Source: an uncultured SAR86 cluster bacterium (GTDB taxonomy: Bacteria > Pseudomonadota > Gammaproteobacteria > Magnimaribacterales > D2472). From it: a DNA stretch of 64,000 nt. Where the stretch lies: contig CACEDQ010000005.1 of the NCBI GenBank assembly GCA_902558375.1, positions 1 to 64,000 of the forward strand. The letters run 5' to 3'. Position numbers and translations under genes: made by a program. Shown here piece by piece: positions 50,584 to 57,550 of the stretch (position 1 is the first letter of the stretch; the number at the start of each line of letters is the position of its first letter). The notes under the pieces are model-generated. The model searched no databases. It was not told the origin of the DNA and worked only from the letters and a program-made list of their open reading frames with translations.

Positions 50584-53500
50584 ATGCTCAATAGATATTT
50601 AAATCAACTTTTTATAATTCCGATTTCTTTTGTTGTTTTAATTTCTTGTGGTGGCGGAGGCGGCGGAGGCGGCGGAGAACCATCAACACCATCACCTCAG
50701 CCAGTGGTATCTCTCTCAGCTGATCAAACATCTGTTTTAGTTGATTCTTCAACAAATCTTACATGGTCTTCAACAAACGCTAATTCATGTTCTGCATCGT
50801 GGACATCACAAACAACTACCTCTGGAACAGCTTCAGTAACAATCTCGACAGTCGGCAATAATAATTTTTCTATAACTTGTAGTGGAGCTGGAGGAAACGG
50901 CTCAGCATCCATTTCTATTGAAGGTTATAGAAATACCGATGGGGTTGTCGTTGATGGCTATATATCTGGTGCTGAAGTATGTATAGATGAGGATAATAGT
51001 TGGACATGTGACTCAGATGAATCTTCAACAACTTCTGATAATGATGGTAAGTTTACTATTAAATACGCCAACGGTAATTTAGTTTCTATAGGTGGTACAG
51101 ATTTAGATTCTCAAGTGCTATTGGAGAATTTTCTAATAACACATGCTTTAGATGGTCATACTGATTTTAAAGCTTTAACTCCAGTAACCTCAGTTGCAGC
51201 CTTTATGCAAGATAGCTCATTAATCAATGCAGTTCTTGGCATTGATTCATCTATTGATGTCTTCAGCTTTGACCCGGTTGAAAATAAAGGAGATGGAGAT
51301 ATAAATGATTATTTATATGAAAAAGGCAATCAATTAACAATACTAGCTCTCGCATTGCAAAATGTAGTAAATAATTCGAACTCAACTACTGACACCACTC
51401 AAGACTACTTTAAAGCTATCGCTGAAGAAATTGAAAAAGAATATGAAGAAACATCCATCAGAGTAAATATTGAATCCGAAGAATTTATTACTAAAGCTTT
51501 TAATAATATTATAGCTGCTAAAGAAACTAGCATTTCTGAAACTAATCAAGCTAACGCAATAACCGCTATTTCAGCTTATATACCAGTTATTGAAATAAAA
51601 TCATCTAATGAGCTGACGACATCAGTAATTCGTTTTGGTTTATCAACTTTTCAAACAGACATTAAAGCCATTTCTGATGGAACCGCAACCGAACAAACGG
51701 TTAATAGTTATGCTGAGAGTATATTAAATTATATTTCTGAAGATCAAAGCGTAAGTGCTGCCGATATTGCTGTTAGTGTTAATGCAGTAAGTGAGTCGGT
51801 AACTACAAATGAGGACAATGCTGTTACAGTAAATGTTTTGTTAAATGATTCCTATAACCCGGCTGAGCCATTAAGTTTAACAGTAACCAATGGGGCTAAT
51901 GGAACAACTGCTATTTCTGAGTTTACTGATAAAATTGTTTATACACCTAATCTAAATTACAACGGTAATGATGTTTTTACCTATACAATCACTCAAGGCG
52001 GTTTAACTTCAAGTGCTAATGTAAGTGTGACCATAGAGCCTGTTAATGATGCTCCATCAATAGATGCAGCATCAATTCTTGAAGCTGAAGAAAACCAAAG
52101 CTCAGTAGCTACAATAGCTGTCTCGGATGTTGATAATGATCAGCTTGAACTATCAATGAGCGGAGTTGATGCTGATAGTTTGAATTTATCAAATGACAAT
52201 GTTCTGACATTCAAAGAAGATCCTGACTATGAGACCAAATCTTCATACGAAATTACTTTGTCATTAACTGATGGAATAGAGACTGTTACTAAAGATATAA
52301 CAATTCAAATAATAGATATTAGTTATGTTTTCACAGGTAAGGTCATGGATGGATACATATCAGGTGCTGAAATATATTTTGACCAAAATTTCAATTTTAC
52401 TAAAGATGAGGGTGAGTTCTCAGCTACAACTTTGGAAGACGGGTCTTTTATTATTGATACAGGCGATAATGAAACACTGGGTGCCTGTCTTGCCAAAAGA
52501 CCAATCATTGCCGATGTCCCTGTAGGCGCTATTGATTCTACACTTGGTGAGGTAACAAGTGCATATCAAATGATCCTACCATCTATAGATGATACTGGTT
52601 TTGATGCAATTGTAATATCACCGTTTACCACACTCCTTGGCGATGCAGTTATTCAAGGCGTTAATGCTTCTGATATTGTTGATGAGCTTGATATTGATGC
52701 AGGTTGTAGTGATGTTGGAGACACTATTGCAGCTAATATATCTAATGAATTACTTCAAATTAAGAATTCAATTGAAGCAAGTCTTGAAATTTCGTTTGAT
52801 AATTTATTAGTTGACTTTATTGAAGATTCACCTAACTCAACCGTTACAGAGGCTGCTGCACAAAATATTGCAGTGTTCTTTCCATTTTTTAAAGAGTTAT
52901 CAGATGAGTTTGATGCTGAACTAACTGATATTCATCAAAAAAATATTAATACACAAGTATTAATTGAAAAAGATTCAGTTAATTCAATATTATCGTCCAC
53001 TGAAATAGAAGAGATGCCACTAAGCTTTAATGCAATTTATAAGACAGAACCTAATGATCTTGGTTGGTATATTGAAGAAAAAATAGTAGCAAATGGAGCC
53101 AATATATCTAATAGTGGTGAGATGGAGCATTTTAAATGTTTCTCTAATGATGCACAGAATTGTGTAACGAATACAAGAAGCCTCGATGCTCTTAGCAATG
53201 CCTCAAAAAGATACACCAGAACAAGTTCTTTTAAAAATGACAGCTACGACCCAACCAATTATTCATATAGATTAGTAGTTGAGGACGAGCAAAGAGTTGA
53301 TTTTGATATCGATGGCAATCCGCTATACAGAGTCTGTATAGATCAAAATTGGTTATATTTAACACCTTTAAATGAGGCTGAAAATTTTTCAACAAATGAT
53401 AGATATAACACCGGTGTTGCTCATGCAACTTCGGCTGATGATGATTGTGTTTCAGTAATAAACGCAAGAGATGAGGCTCTGTTTGTTGCTCTTGTTGAAT

Positions 53501-56500
53501 CCTTTGATGACGGCATCAATTTTGAAGAACTAGATATAAGAATCACTAATAACAAATATGCTGAATCAACATTTTTTGAAAATAAAGTAAATAATATCTA
53601 TCAAAATAGAGATACTCTTGATTTAGATCCATTAATTCAAGAAATTGGTTCAGTTCCTAGAACATTAAGAGAGATAGAAACTTTAAGAGCCAAGCTAAAT
53701 GAATCATCAACTGATCAGATTTCAATATACTGGGCAAAAAGAGACGCAGATAGTCAGCTTGTAGAAACTTCAAGAATTGATATTAACTATGATAGAAATA
53801 AAGACGTATTTGAATACGGCACCTATGAAAATTCATCTTTTGGTTCTGAATATACTCAAGTCTTAAAAACAGAAGGGCAAGAGGCAAGAAATGCTATTGT
53901 TGATACCTTGTACGAGAAGTCTGCTGTATTCAATAATTCAGACTATTTAAGTTATGCTCCAGTATTTTCTTCAGCAGCTGTGTATAGCATTGATGAAAAT
54001 GAGGTAAATGTAGGAACAGCAACTGCAACAGATGCAGATGGTGATGATGTATCCTTTACTATTACAAGTGATGATCTTGAAATTACTTCTGATGGAGTCT
54101 TAACTTTCATATCAGCTCCAGACTACGAAACTCAAACCTCTTATACAGCAACAATCACTGTAAGTGATGGTACCAATATAACCACACAAGATATAACTAT
54201 TAATGTTAATAATATCAACGACAACACACCAACTATCACGTCTGTTGATACATTTAATATCGATGAAAATCTGACTGCTATTGGAACATTAACTGGAGAT
54301 GATGCTGATGGAGATGCTATTTCATTCTCCATTTCTGGTGATGATGCTTCATCTGTTTCTGTAAATGCTGCGTCTGGAGTATTGGTATTTAATACAGCAC
54401 CAGACTTTGAATCTAAAACAGCATATTCAATAGTAGCCACCGTTGATGATGGGTTATTTAGCGCAACACAAAATATAACGATTAATATAAATAATGTTGA
54501 TGAGCCTCCTGTTTTCACTTCGTCTGACACCTTTAGTGCCGATGAAAATCAGACATCTATGGGCAGTATTGCTGCCACTGATCCAGAGGGAGCTTCTGTA
54601 TCTTATGCTATTAGCGGTAGTGATGTTGATGTATTTAGTATTTCAGATTCTGGAGTTATTACATTTGATTCTGCTCCAAATTATGAAGTAAAAAATATTT
54701 ATTCCATTACCGCTACTGCTAGCGATGGGACCATTGCTGCAACTCAAGACATAACAATCAACATTAATGATGTAAATGATGCACCGGTAGTTAGTGCTGC
54801 TAGCTATACTTTGAATTTAATGCCAAAAGATCAAACAACTAAAACTCTTACACTGGCTGCAAGTGATGAAGATGGTGATACATTAACTTATACAGTTGTA
54901 GATAATGGCTCCTATGGAACAGCATCATTCACTGCTCAGTCATCAGCCGAAACCATTGGTGTATCAGTTGAAGCTAATAATTCAGGTTCGGGCAATGTTT
55001 ATGTTATTGATGGCACGCAGAATAAAGCTATTACTTTGAATGTTGGAACTACTTATACCTTTAGTCATCCACAAGCTCACCCCTTAAGATTTTCTACTAC
55101 ATCAGACGGAACCCATGGGGGAGGAAGTGAATTTACTACAGGAGTAACTACTTCTGATGGCTCAACAGTTATCGAAGTTACATCTAGCACACCAACCACT
55201 TTATATTATTACTGTTCAATTCATGCCGGTATGGGTGCATCTGCAACAATGGTTAATTCTAATGGAGATTCATCAATAACATATAAAACCTCTGCAAGCA
55301 CTCAGGCTGCTCAATCAGAAACTTTCACATTTAAAGTGAATGATGGGACAGTGGATTCAGATAACGCGACTATATCTATTGATCTCAGAACAGATCCGTT
55401 ATATCAATATCAGTGGCACTTAAACAACACTGGCCAAACAAATTTTGCAACAAATGCTGGTACTGCAGGACAGGATTTAAATGTAGATAGTGTCATAATC
55501 GATGGAATCACTGGTAATGGAATTAAAATATCAATTGTTGATGATGGTCTTGAAATAGCACATGAAGATTTAGTAGATAACGTTATAAGCGGATCATGGA
55601 ATTTTGTGAACTCAAGCACGGATCCAACACAACCAACCTCTGATGAAGGCGGAGGTCACGGAACAAGTATTGGGGGAATTATAGCTGCTAAAGGTTGGAA
55701 CAATATTGGCGTTAGAGGTATAGCACCAAACGCGTCTATGTTTGGGTATAATTATCTGGAAAATCAAACAACTACAAACAATAATCAAGCTCACGGAATA
55801 AATCCTCCTGGAGGAGTTACTGCCGATATTTATAATATGAGTTACGGAATTGGTTATGGAAGCGGAAATACAAGATATAGCCTGCAACAATTTTTATCTA
55901 CATCAACAGAAGAGAAATTTGTAAGCGGTACAAGCAATTTAAGAGATGGCAAGGGAGCTTTATATATAAAATCATCTGGTAACGATTATGATACTCAGTC
56001 AGACTCTATTTGCGGTACAGATAAACCACTGAGTTGTACTGAGACTTCGATAGATAACAAGAATCAATCACCATACATAATTGTAGTAGGGGCTCTTGGC
56101 GCTGATGGAGAAAAAACTTCATACTCTACGCCAGGTTCATCTATTTGGGTTTCTGGTTTTGGTGGAGAGTTTGGCTATGATTCTAATGTTTACAATGTTA
56201 GTGGTGTTAGTCTTGATCCAGCAATAATGACAGTTGATAGGTCTAGTTGTAGTTTGGGATATTCAAGATCTGGTGATAATAGCAGCTATGGCAAAAATAA
56301 ATTTAATCTTGCAGGCTATAACTTTTCTGAGCAATTAAATTTAAATCCTGATTGTAATTATAATAGCCACTTTAATGGAACATCAGCTGCTGCACCAACA
56401 GTTTCAGGAGTAGTTGCACTAATGTTGGAAGCTAATCCAGACCTAACTTGGAGAGATGTTAAACATATTTTAGTAAACACTTCTGCAAAAATTGATGCAA

Positions 56501-57030
56501 CTAGATCAACTGCTGTTGATGGAGTTACACAGTATTCATGGGTTCAAAATGCTGCTGGACATGAACACCATAATTGGTATGGTTTTGGCAAGGTAGACGC
56601 ATCAGCTGCAGTTAATGTTGCTAAAGACTTTACAGCAAATAATCTTGGTTCCTTTGTTACAACTGGATTTATCAGCGAAACAGTAAATGGAGAAATACCT
56701 GATAATTCAGGCGGAAGTGTTCAGTTAGCATTAACCAAGCCAAGCGGTTCAAATGGTAAGATTGAATTTGTAAGAGTAAGCATAGACTTTGATCATACTG
56801 AACCTTGGTCTGTCGGTTTTAGACTTCAATCACCAGATGGAACTATTTTAAACATAATGCAGCCATATACTAATTTAAATAACCCTGGTGGAGGATATTA
56901 TTTTGATATTGGAGTAAGTGGTTTTTATGGTGAAAATATGGAAGGTGATTGGATATTAGAAGCTAGAGATTACTCTGAGGGCACCACAGGTGTTTTGAAG
57001 AGATGGGGAATAGAGTTGTATGGAAATTAA
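50584..57030 (+). CDS. Giant multidomain lipoprotein: cadherin-like repeats, inserted cupredoxin-like domain, S8 subtilisin/kexin protease and P/Homo B domain
   Basis: Lipobox LISC + polyglycine; cadherin-like repeats about 53950-54920; HPLRF...YYYCSIHAGM; S8 triad SIVDDGLEIAHEDL / GGGHGTSIGG / FNGTSAAAPTVSG; C-terminal IEFVRVSIDFDHTEPWSVGFRLQSPDGT...GDWILEARDYSEGTTGVLKRWGIELYG. Confidence 0.88.
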   Translation: MLNRYLNQLFIIPISFVVLISCGGGGGGGGGEPSTPSPQPVVSLSADQTSVLVDSSTNLTWSSTNANSCSASWTSQTTTSGTASVTISTVGNNNFSITCSGAGGNGSASISIEGYRNTDGVVVDGYISGAEVCIDEDNSWTCDSDESSTTSDNDGKFTIKYANGNLVSIGGTDLDSQVLLENFLITHALDGHTDFKALTPVTSVAAFMQDSSLINAVLGIDSSIDVFSFDPVENKGDGDINDYLYEKGNQLTILALALQNVVNNSNSTTDTTQDYFKAIAEEIEKEYEETSIRVNIESEEFITKAFNNIIAAKETSISETNQANAITAISAYIPVIEIKSSNELTTSVIRFGLSTFQTDIKAISDGTATEQTVNSYAESILNYISEDQSVSAADIAVSVNAVSESVTTNEDNAVTVNVLLNDSYNPAEPLSLTVTNGANGTTAISEFTDKIVYTPNLNYNGNDVFTYTITQGGLTSSANVSVTIEPVNDAPSIDAASILEAEENQSSVATIAVSDVDNDQLELSMSGVDADSLNLSNDNVLTFKEDPDYETKSSYEITLSLTDGIETVTKDITIQIIDISYVFTGKVMDGYISGAEIYFDQNFNFTKDEGEFSATTLEDGSFIIDTGDNETLGACLAKRPIIADVPVGAIDSTLGEVTSAYQMILPSIDDTGFDAIVISPFTTLLGDAVIQGVNASDIVDELDIDAGCSDVGDTIAANISNELLQIKNSIEASLEISFDNLLVDFIEDSPNSTVTEAAAQNIAVFFPFFKELSDEFDAELTDIHQKNINTQVLIEKDSVNSILSSTEIEEMPLSFNAIYKTEPNDLGWYIEEKIVANGANISNSGEMEHFKCFSNDAQNCVTNTRSLDALSNASKRYTRTSSFKNDSYDPTNYSYRLVVEDEQRVDFDIDGNPLYRVCIDQNWLYLTPLNEAENFSTNDRYNTGVAHATSADDDCVSVINARDEALFVALVESFDDGINFEELDIRITNNKYAESTFFENKVNNIYQNRDTLDLDPLIQEIGSVPRTLREIETLRAKLNESSTDQISIYWAKRDADSQLVETSRIDINYDRNKDVFEYGTYENSSFGSEYTQVLKTEGQEARNAIVDTLYEKSAVFNNSDYLSYAPVFSSAAVYSIDENEVNVGTATATDADGDDVSFTITSDDLEITSDGVLTFISAPDYETQTSYTATITVSDGTNITTQDITINVNNINDNTPTITSVDTFNIDENLTAIGTLTGDDADGDAISFSISGDDASSVSVNAASGVLVFNTAPDFESKTAYSIVATVDDGLFSATQNITININNVDEPPVFTSSDTFSADENQTSMGSIAATDPEGASVSYAISGSDVDVFSISDSGVITFDSAPNYEVKNIYSITATASDGTIAATQDITININDVNDAPVVSAASYTLNLMPKDQTTKTLTLAASDEDGDTLTYTVVDNGSYGTASFTAQSSAETIGVSVEANNSGSGNVYVIDGTQNKAITLNVGTTYTFSHPQAHPLRFSTTSDGTHGGGSEFTTGVTTSDGSTVIEVTSSTPTTLYYYCSIHAGMGASATMVNSNGDSSITYKTSASTQAAQSETFTFKVNDGTVDSDNATISIDLRTDPLYQYQWHLNNTGQTNFATNAGTAGQDLNVDSVIIDGITGNGIKISIVDDGLEIAHEDLVDNVISGSWNFVNSSTDPTQPTSDEGGGHGTSIGGIIAAKGWNNIGVRGIAPNASMFGYNYLENQTTTNNNQAHGINPPGGVTADIYNMSYGIGYGSGNTRYSLQQFLSTSTEEKFVSGTSNLRDGKGALYIKSSGNDYDTQSDSICGTDKPLSCTETSIDNKNQSPYIIVVGALGADGEKTSYSTPGSSIWVSGFGGEFGYDSNVYNVSGVSLDPAIMTVDRSSCSLGYSRSGDNSSYGKNKFNLAGYNFSEQLNLNPDCNYNSHFNGTSAAAPTVSGVVALMLEANPDLTWRDVKHILVNTSAKIDATRSTAVDGVTQYSWVQNAAGHEHHNWYGFGKVDASAAVNVAKDFTANNLGSFVTTGFISETVNGEIPDNSGGSVQLALTKPSGSNGKIEFVRVSIDFDHTEPWSVGFRLQSPDGTILNIMQPYTNLNNPGGGYYFDIGVSGFYGENMEGDWILEARDYSEGTTGVLKRWGIELYGN

Positions 57031-57550
57031 ATTTAATCATATTCAAATGCATTATTTTTTTAGCATGTTTTTAATTTTTAGTTTTTATTCAGAGCTTACC
57101 TCTGAAGAGGAATTAATTTCTAATAAATTAAAGTACAACACTGAATTTGATAGTTTCGGTAAAGATGCATATTTAAAAGAACCCTTTAAAGGAGTTGAAT
57201 TGAATTTCAAAAAGAAATTTAATATTTTGAATGAGGAAATTCAAAGTGGAAATATGTCTGATGGAATGATTTTGCAACCCCAAGAATATATTCAAATTAA
57301 AGGGGTTGATAATAGATTGTTGTTATTCAATGGACATTTTTTAATTAAATTTAAAAAACTTCCTAATTTAAATGATTATGCTGATAAGCATCAGATCACT
57401 TTTGTAACTAGTCTGAGTGATATCAATGTTGCAGTTTTTAAATCAGAGGATATTTTAGAAATTAAATCAAAAATAGATCGTATAAGTAAAGATGGCAACA
57501 TACTTTCCATTGAATTAGATATTGTTGACCCATTTTTACAGCCAAATTAA
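57020..57550 (+). CDS. Exported small protein resembling an S8 protease propeptide / external chaperone
   Basis: Overlaps the end of the protease gene; hydrophobic signal-like N-terminus; HFLIKFKKLPNLNDYADKHQITFVTSLSDINVAVFKSEDILEIKSKIDRISKDGNILSIELDIVDPFLQPN ends like an S8 propeptide junction. Confidence 0.6.
   Translation: MEIKFNHIQMHYFFSMFLIFSFYSELTSEEELISNKLKYNTEFDSFGKDAYLKEPFKGVELNFKKKFNILNEEIQSGNMSDGMILQPQEYIQIKGVDNRLLLFNGHFLIKFKKLPNLNDYADKHQITFVTSLSDINVAVFKSEDILEIKSKIDRISKDGNILSIELDIVDPFLQPN

What the first reader, a model, noticed from the sequence alone, without database searches (positions are those of the whole stretch)
57020..57550. Protease propeptide apparently split off and encoded in trans directly downstream of a kexin-like protease
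Seen: the S8 domain of the 2148-aa protein begins ...RTDPLYQYQWHLNNTGQ with no recognisable I9-type propeptide immediately before it (a cadherin/VCBS-like region is there instead). The next gene overlaps its 3' end and encodes an exported 176-aa protein whose C-terminal half (HFLIKFKKL...INVAVFKSEDILEIKSKIDRISKDGNILSIELDIVDPFLQPN-stop) reads like the end of an S8 propeptide, where fused enzymes typically continue ...PNDPLYxxQW. Established: Aeromonas sobria serine protease (ASP), also kexin-like with a P-domain, lacks a propeptide and needs the downstream-encoded ORF2 external chaperone. Inference: this is an analogous protease/external-chaperone pair on a surface lipoprotein that is architecturally very different from ASP.
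Basis: partly seen in the sequence, partly recalled or inferred. Interest (0 to 1): 0.8.

Follow-up and report, generated by a model that had tools for sequence, protein, structure and literature searches.

The report
Protease propeptide encoded as separate gene
In marine SAR86 bacteria, a surface protease lacks the built-in folding helper and inhibitor that such enzymes normally carry, and the gene overlapping its end encodes a separate small protein with that helper's predicted fold, an arrangement known in Aeromonas and found here in several other bacterial lineages.

Summary

Window 50584-57030 encodes a 2148-aa lipoprotein with Ig/cadherin repeats, an S8 domain and a P-domain, and no recognisable propeptide. 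Its closest solved structure is Aeromonas sobria ASP (E=1e-57).

The 176-aa ORF at 57020-57550 overlaps it by 11 nt. [quoted passage not shown] The best of 350,542 PDB chains is 3wqb_B, the ORF2 chaperone bound to ASP; the next hits are S8 prodomains.

Co-occurrence is strict in both directions. All 18 relatives found by searching for the small protein sit next to an S8-P gene, and all 21 complete S8-P genes found in 203 genomes of the order have it. Neighbouring genes differ. One relative (G198) has only 30 residues between lipid anchor and protease, so it cannot hold a propeptide.

Beyond SAR86, the module is a 3' gene, a 5' gene or an N-terminal fusion in one S8-P family. That extends the ASP/ORF2 kind rather than founding a new one. 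Chaperone activity, contact and inhibition are untested. The window protein falls below Pfam's ORF_2_N cut-off, so it works like ORF2 but is not filed as a member.

The parts
50584..57030 (+). 2148-aa lipoprotein protease: lipobox, Big_9/cadherin repeats, S8 domain, P-domain
   Evidence: only PF00082 match in the window's own 1.0-Mb, 72%-complete assembly
50638..50664 (+). Lipobox LISC-GGGGG (lipidated Cys22)
   Evidence: sequence; lipobox-CGG also found in most relatives that are complete at the 5' end
51784..55386 (+). Big_9/cadherin-like repeat region, ending where a propeptide would normally sit
   Evidence: Pfam; no propeptide family detected
55387..55437 (+). Conserved start of the mature catalytic region, RTDPLYQYQWHLNNTGQ
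   Evidence: the same DPLY..QW motif directly follows a 30-residue linker in G198
55513..56589 (+). Peptidase S8 domain; catalytic D, H, N and S in invariant columns
   Evidence: best PDB matches 3hjr_A and 3wqb_A, ASP
56764..57015 (+). P-domain (P_proprotein)
   Evidence: E=8.7e-11
57020..57030 (+). 11-nt overlap of protease stop and small-gene start; the same 11-nt overlap in 11 of the 19 loci measured
57020..57550 (+). 176-aa putative external propeptide (steric chaperone/inhibitor)
57020..57103 (+). Hydrophobic N-terminal helix, probable Sec signal peptide
   Evidence: sequence; helix 7-34 in the AF2 model. No signal-peptide predictor was run
57317..57526 (+). [quoted passage not shown]
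   Evidence: AF2 10-residue block pLDDT 91-97; Foldseek top hit ORF2 3wqb_B
57527..57547 (+). C-terminal tail, proposed to lie in the active site as the ORF2 C-terminus does
   Evidence: comparison with PMC5638518; inferred

Best explanation
The 176-aa protein is an external propeptide: a separately encoded, exported steric chaperone and temporary inhibitor for the S8-P lipoprotein protease encoded immediately upstream. Shown here by computation: the protease lacks a recognisable propeptide; the small protein has a predicted S8-prodomain/ORF2-like fold; the two genes overlap, are always adjacent in SAR86 and diverge in step. Inferred from ASP/ORF2: both proteins cross the inner membrane; the small protein's beta sheet packs on the catalytic domain to help it fold; its C-terminal tail fills the active site until it is removed or degraded, leaving an active lipid-anchored protease.
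For: [quoted passage not shown] Foldseek top hit of 350,542 PDB chains is ORF2 3wqb_B, and the first 15 hits are all ORF2, S8 prodomains or S8 proenzymes. A second family member (G057) has as its five best hits the PC1/3 prodomain (three), PAM protease prodomain and ORF2. Sequence: a profile of 24 small proteins finds only two sequences in all of PDB, both ORF2 (E=0.036 and 0.046). Nine of 19 members hit ORF_2_N (best 4.8e-6) and six hit the fervidolysin prodomain; three of those pass the fervidolysin Pfam cut-off. Missing propeptide: G198 has 30 residues between lipid Cys17 and DPLY; no SAR86 N-terminal extension matches the module. Partner: S8-P region closest to ASP in PDB, E=1e-57 over 514 residues; the only S8 in the assembly. 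Linkage: 18/18 from the small-protein side, 21/21 complete genes from the S8 side, with 13 different downstream neighbour genes. Distance matrices correlate, r=0.885, n=21. A related module is fused in cis to this protease type in eight other loci.
Against: No contact was modelled and there are no functional data. Single-hit statistics are modest: Foldseek E=7e-3, window-protein Pfam E=0.17-0.19, PDB profile E=0.036. The case rests on ranking and convergence. The small protein's C-terminal residue is N, Q, E, H, D, R or Y in SAR86, unlike the Lys of ORF2, although the conserved TxD aspartate that furin uses in its S1 pocket suggests a basic P1 preference (furin role from memory); how the tail fits is unexplained. 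The distance correlation was not corrected for species phylogeny. One related clade has no detectable module nearby (L109 group), so some members may fold without it or use a distant partner.
Confidence: 0.86

Rival explanations
1. The small protein is only a periplasmic inhibitor or self-protection protein, as SUB1-ProM, TgMIC5 and fungal I9 inhibitors are for their enzymes; the protease folds by itself.
For: Stand-alone propeptide-like proteins that inhibit without chaperone activity exist (PMC6993865). Fold alone cannot separate inhibition from chaperoning.
Against: The protease has no propeptide of its own, and the closest solved homologue, ASP, needs its ORF2 to mature (PMC5638518).
Confidence: 0.1
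2. The small protein is a secretion or surface-assembly factor for the giant lipoprotein that merely resembles a prodomain.
For: The partner is a lipoprotein; many SAR86 members carry long repeat regions.
Against: The pair is kept when the repeats are absent (G198, 574 aa). Structural ranking favours S8 prodomains, and a related module is fused to the protease in other bacteria.
Confidence: 0.03
3. Unrelated neighbour gene; adjacency is hitch-hiking and the fold match is chance for a common ferredoxin-like topology.
For: Ferredoxin-like folds are common; individual E-values are modest.
Against: Two-way co-occurrence (18/18 and 21/21) in 13 different downstream contexts, distance correlation, and sequence-profile hits limited to ORF2 in PDB.
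Confidence: 0.01

Closest known systems
Aeromonas sobria serine protease ASP and its external chaperone ORF2 (PDB 3HJR, 3WQB, 2MK4; Pfam PF18492)
   Same: Propeptide-less S8 protease with P-domain; small exported protein encoded directly 3'; best sequence and structure matches for both partners
   Different: Here the protease is a lipoprotein with a long Ig/cadherin N-terminal region in many members; the small protein is below the PF18492 cut-off; C-terminal residue not Lys; [quoted passage not shown]
In-cis S8 prodomains (fervidolysin PF22148, subtilisin, PC1/3, furin type)
   Same: [quoted passage not shown] three SAR86 relatives pass the PF22148 cut-off
   Different: Encoded as a separate gene, so no autocleavage of a peptide bond is needed to separate it from the protease
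Stand-alone propeptide-like inhibitors: Plasmodium SUB1-ProM, Toxoplasma TgMIC5, fungal I9 inhibitors (PMC6993865)
   Same: Separate gene product with propeptide fold, expected to bind an S8 active site
   Different: Those are described as regulatory inhibitors independent of chaperone activity; here the cognate protease has no propeptide of its own
Lipase-specific foldase Lif (from memory)
   Same: Separately encoded periplasmic steric chaperone, typically 3' of its enzyme gene
   Different: Unrelated fold and enzyme class

Membership tests
ASP/ORF2 protease-external chaperone pair | S8 protease with P-domain closely related to ASP | tested here: met
   3hjr_A/3wqb_A best PDB hits, 1e-57 over 514 residues
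ASP/ORF2 protease-external chaperone pair | Protease lacks its own propeptide | tested here: met
   No propeptide family in the window protein; 30-residue linker in G198; none in SAR86 N-extensions
ASP/ORF2 protease-external chaperone pair | Small exported protein encoded directly 3' on the same strand | tested here: met
   21 of 21 complete SAR86 loci; export inferred from a hydrophobic N-terminus only
ASP/ORF2 protease-external chaperone pair | Small protein has the ORF2 fold | tested here: met
   3wqb_B is the Foldseek rank-1 hit and rank 5 for a second member; predicted models only
PF18492 ORF_2_N (strict family membership) | Score above Pfam gathering cut-off 29.2 bits | tested here: not met
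   Window protein 12.4 bits; best relative 27.2 bits
ASP/ORF2 protease-external chaperone pair | Chaperone required for active protease; C-terminus occupies the active site | not testable with these tools
   Needs expression, binding and structure; no multimer prediction available
PF22148 Fervidolysin N-terminal prodomain | Score above cut-off 21 bits | tested here: inconclusive
   Window protein 12.8 bits, not met; relatives G030 22.4, G081 23.6 and G057 26.6 bits pass

The most novel reading that the evidence does not exclude
In the ASP-like S8-P protease family a separately encoded propeptide is the rule, and the module has moved between 3' gene, 5' gene and N-terminal fusion several times, making this a natural series for how a folding chaperone is split from or joined to its enzyme, possibly with fusion as the derived state.
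Probability: 0.4. Interest if true: 0.7.

Novelty: new variant of a known kind. Interest (0 to 1): 0.6.

Why it matters
External propeptides of bacterial S8 proteases were reported for five genera (PMC5638518). These data put the same arrangement in SAR86, an abundant uncultured marine lineage, and in SAR92, Desulfobacteraceae, Arcobacteraceae, Oceanospirillaceae, Xanthomonas, Luteibacter and others, and show cis, 5' and 3' versions of what profile comparisons suggest is one module. It means such proteases may look inactive or misfolded when cloned alone, and it gives natural variants for testing why a propeptide would be supplied in trans, for example for lipid-anchored enzymes.

Tried and rejected
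1. A stop-read-through fusion of protease and small protein (G080, the only in-frame locus) was aligned for a pseudo-complex prediction, but MAFFT placed the small-protein rows on the protease part, so it was not folded. 3. Hits in G163, G200 and G003 were rejected as spurious: weak, partial, in ORFs of other lengths, and no S8 gene seen near the G200 hit. 4. L135 and L147 were first labelled cis, but their module is in a different frame from the protease, so they were relabelled as 5' genes. 5. PF18492 searched in 369 genomes of the class found nothing, and no control genome rang either, so this says nothing about absence. 6. Direct hhalign of SAR86 small proteins against the 5'-encoded group was weak (E=0.0085, probability 5%); the link is by intermediates. 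7. Searches for papers on SAR86 S8 proteases or other external propeptides found nothing closer than ASP/ORF2; the 2015 ASP-ORF2 paper itself was not held.

Full report
What is there. The window holds a 2148-aa ORF (50584-57030) and, overlapping it by 11 nt, a 176-aa ORF (57020-57550), both on the + strand. The large protein has a lipobox (LISC-GGGGG), Big_9/cadherin repeats, an S8 domain and a P-domain. No propeptide family is detected in it. It is the only S8 protease in the window's own assembly (1.0 Mb, 72% complete). The organism belongs to the SAR86 cluster, judging from the record titles of its closest relatives.

The protease is ASP-like. Of 177,635 distinct PDB sequences the two best for its S8-P region are ASP of Aeromonas sobria (3hjr_A, 3wqb_A; E=1e-57 over 514 residues), ahead of kexin and furin. 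Catalytic residues lie in invariant columns across SAR86.

The small protein is propeptide-like. Its only two Pfam matches at E up to 1 are the fervidolysin prodomain and ORF_2_N, both below cut-off. [quoted passage not shown] Foldseek ranks ORF2 in complex with ASP (3wqb_B) first among 350,542 chains, followed by S8 prodomains or proenzymes: PAM, EpiP, PC1/3, fervidolysin, subtilisin. A second member, 15% identical to the window protein, was folded from its own alignment. Its first five hits are PC1/3 prodomain (three), PAM protease prodomain and ORF2. E-values are modest because the domain is small; the specificity of the ranking is the argument. A profile of 24 small proteins finds only ORF2 in PDB (2mk4_A E=0.036, 3wqb_B E=0.046). 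Nine of 19 members hit ORF_2_N (best 4.8e-6) and six the fervidolysin prodomain; G030, G081 and G057 pass the latter's cut-off. Some eight to ten residues before the C-terminus all 21 SAR86 members have Asp or Asn (tails). This may correspond to the helix-capping Asp71 of the subtilisin BPN' propeptide described in PMC6993865; that equivalence is inferred from position, not modelled.

The two genes go together. Searching 203 genomes of the order with a profile of the small protein gave 18 credible relatives besides the window; each is immediately 3' of an S8-signature gene. Searching the same genomes with the S8-P region gave 22 genomes. In 21 the gene's 3' end is present and the small gene follows, including two (G046, G059) that the first profile missed; in the last (G042) the match lies at a contig end, which cuts the protease off. 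The 11-nt overlap recurs in 11 of the 19 loci measured; the others overlap by 17 nt or are 1-3 nt apart. The gene beyond the small one belongs to 13 different families across the 21 loci, so the pair is kept while its surroundings change. Distance matrices of protease and small protein correlate (r=0.885, n=21; r=0.91, n=34; Mantel p=1e-4), not corrected for species relatedness.

The protease has no room for its own propeptide in some members. In G198 the whole protein is 574 aa and only 30 residues, a Gly/Pro/Thr-rich linker, separate the lipidated cysteine from DPLYVHQWHLNN. In G061 and G056 about 90 residues that look like a single Ig-like domain fill that space. No SAR86 N-terminal extension matches the small-protein profile.

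Beyond SAR86. A scan of 85,462 species genomes with the S8-P alignment returned 79 loci. The SAR86-type profile finds the 3' gene in SAR92, a Rhodospirillaceae MAG, Arcobacteraceae, Oceanospirillaceae and Desulfobacteraceae. In Xanthomonas, Luteibacter, Herbaspirillum, Pseudomonas luteola and Comamonadaceae a more divergent small gene sits at the same place. In a large group of mostly MAGs the protease instead has a gene of about 200 aa directly 5', and in eight loci the same domain is fused at the N-terminus of the protease. Profile comparisons link the groups by intermediates: SAR86 to Desulfobacteraceae 5e-7, SAR86 to Oceanospirillaceae/Arcobacteraceae 7e-8, Desulfobacteraceae to Xanthomonas group 5e-7, Xanthomonas group to 5' group 1e-4, 5' group to cis 3e-28; reversed controls about 0.9. 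The direct SAR86 to 5' comparison is weak (E=0.0085). Ten of 15 5'-encoded proteins hit the fervidolysin prodomain, best 5e-5. On a tree of 81 proteases the states are 43 3', 17 5', 3 both, 8 cis and 10 none found. At least 5 changes are needed among the three simple arrangements. The tree is unrooted, was a quick search, and the sample was chosen by similarity to SAR86, so direction of change is not settled.

How it most likely works. By analogy with ASP, which needs ORF2 to mature and whose active site holds the ORF2 C-terminus (PMC5638518), the small protein would be exported, help the catalytic domain fold, block it in product-like fashion through its C-terminal tail and then be removed. 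Shown: architecture, absence of a recognisable cis propeptide, fold prediction, linkage. Inferred: export, contact, folding help, inhibition, order of events. The C-terminal residues (N, Q, E, H, D, R, Y) are not the Lys of ORF2, which either reflects different specificity or a weaker, temporary block; this is open.

Filing. It works like ASP/ORF2 and is probably homologous, but the window protein fails the PF18492 cut-off (12.4 against 29.2 bits), so it is not filed as a member of that Pfam family. It is called a new variant of the known external-propeptide arrangement: different architecture (lipoprotein with Ig/cadherin repeats), new lineages and a cis/5'/3' series.

Noticed in passing
window 54994-55239: Cupredoxin-like stretch (VYVIDGTQNK...HPLRFST...YYYCSIHAGMG; Pfam Copper-bind E=0.12, below cut-off) just before the S8 domain; in G008 and G146 (L025, L027) a similar stretch lies between the S8 domain and the P-domain instead.
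   Followed up: partly
L073 (SAR92 clade bacterium H231): The SAR92 protease groups inside the SAR86 proteases on the tree (SH-aLRT 87-95), with its small 3' gene, suggesting transfer of the pair.
   Followed up: partly
L099, L116, L119 (Xanthomonas): Two different small exported genes flank the protease, one 5' (about 203 aa, ending MQPM) and one 3' (194-198 aa); possibly two modules for one enzyme.
   Followed up: partly
L109, L112, L113, L115, L121, L123-L126: Related S8-P proteases with no detectable propeptide module in cis or nearby; in several the gene upstream is an ORF of about 860 aa that looks like a TonB-dependent receptor.
   Followed up: no
L131:9607-10152: A module of the 5'-encoded type found 3' of the protease, a positional switch inside that group.
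   Followed up: partly
L089:13671-14363: A second copy of the small gene about 4 kb beyond the protease-small gene pair.
   Followed up: no
SAR86 genomes: The pair is patchy: 21 to 22 of 203 genomes of the order, spread over three of its families, so it behaves as an accessory module.
   Followed up: partly
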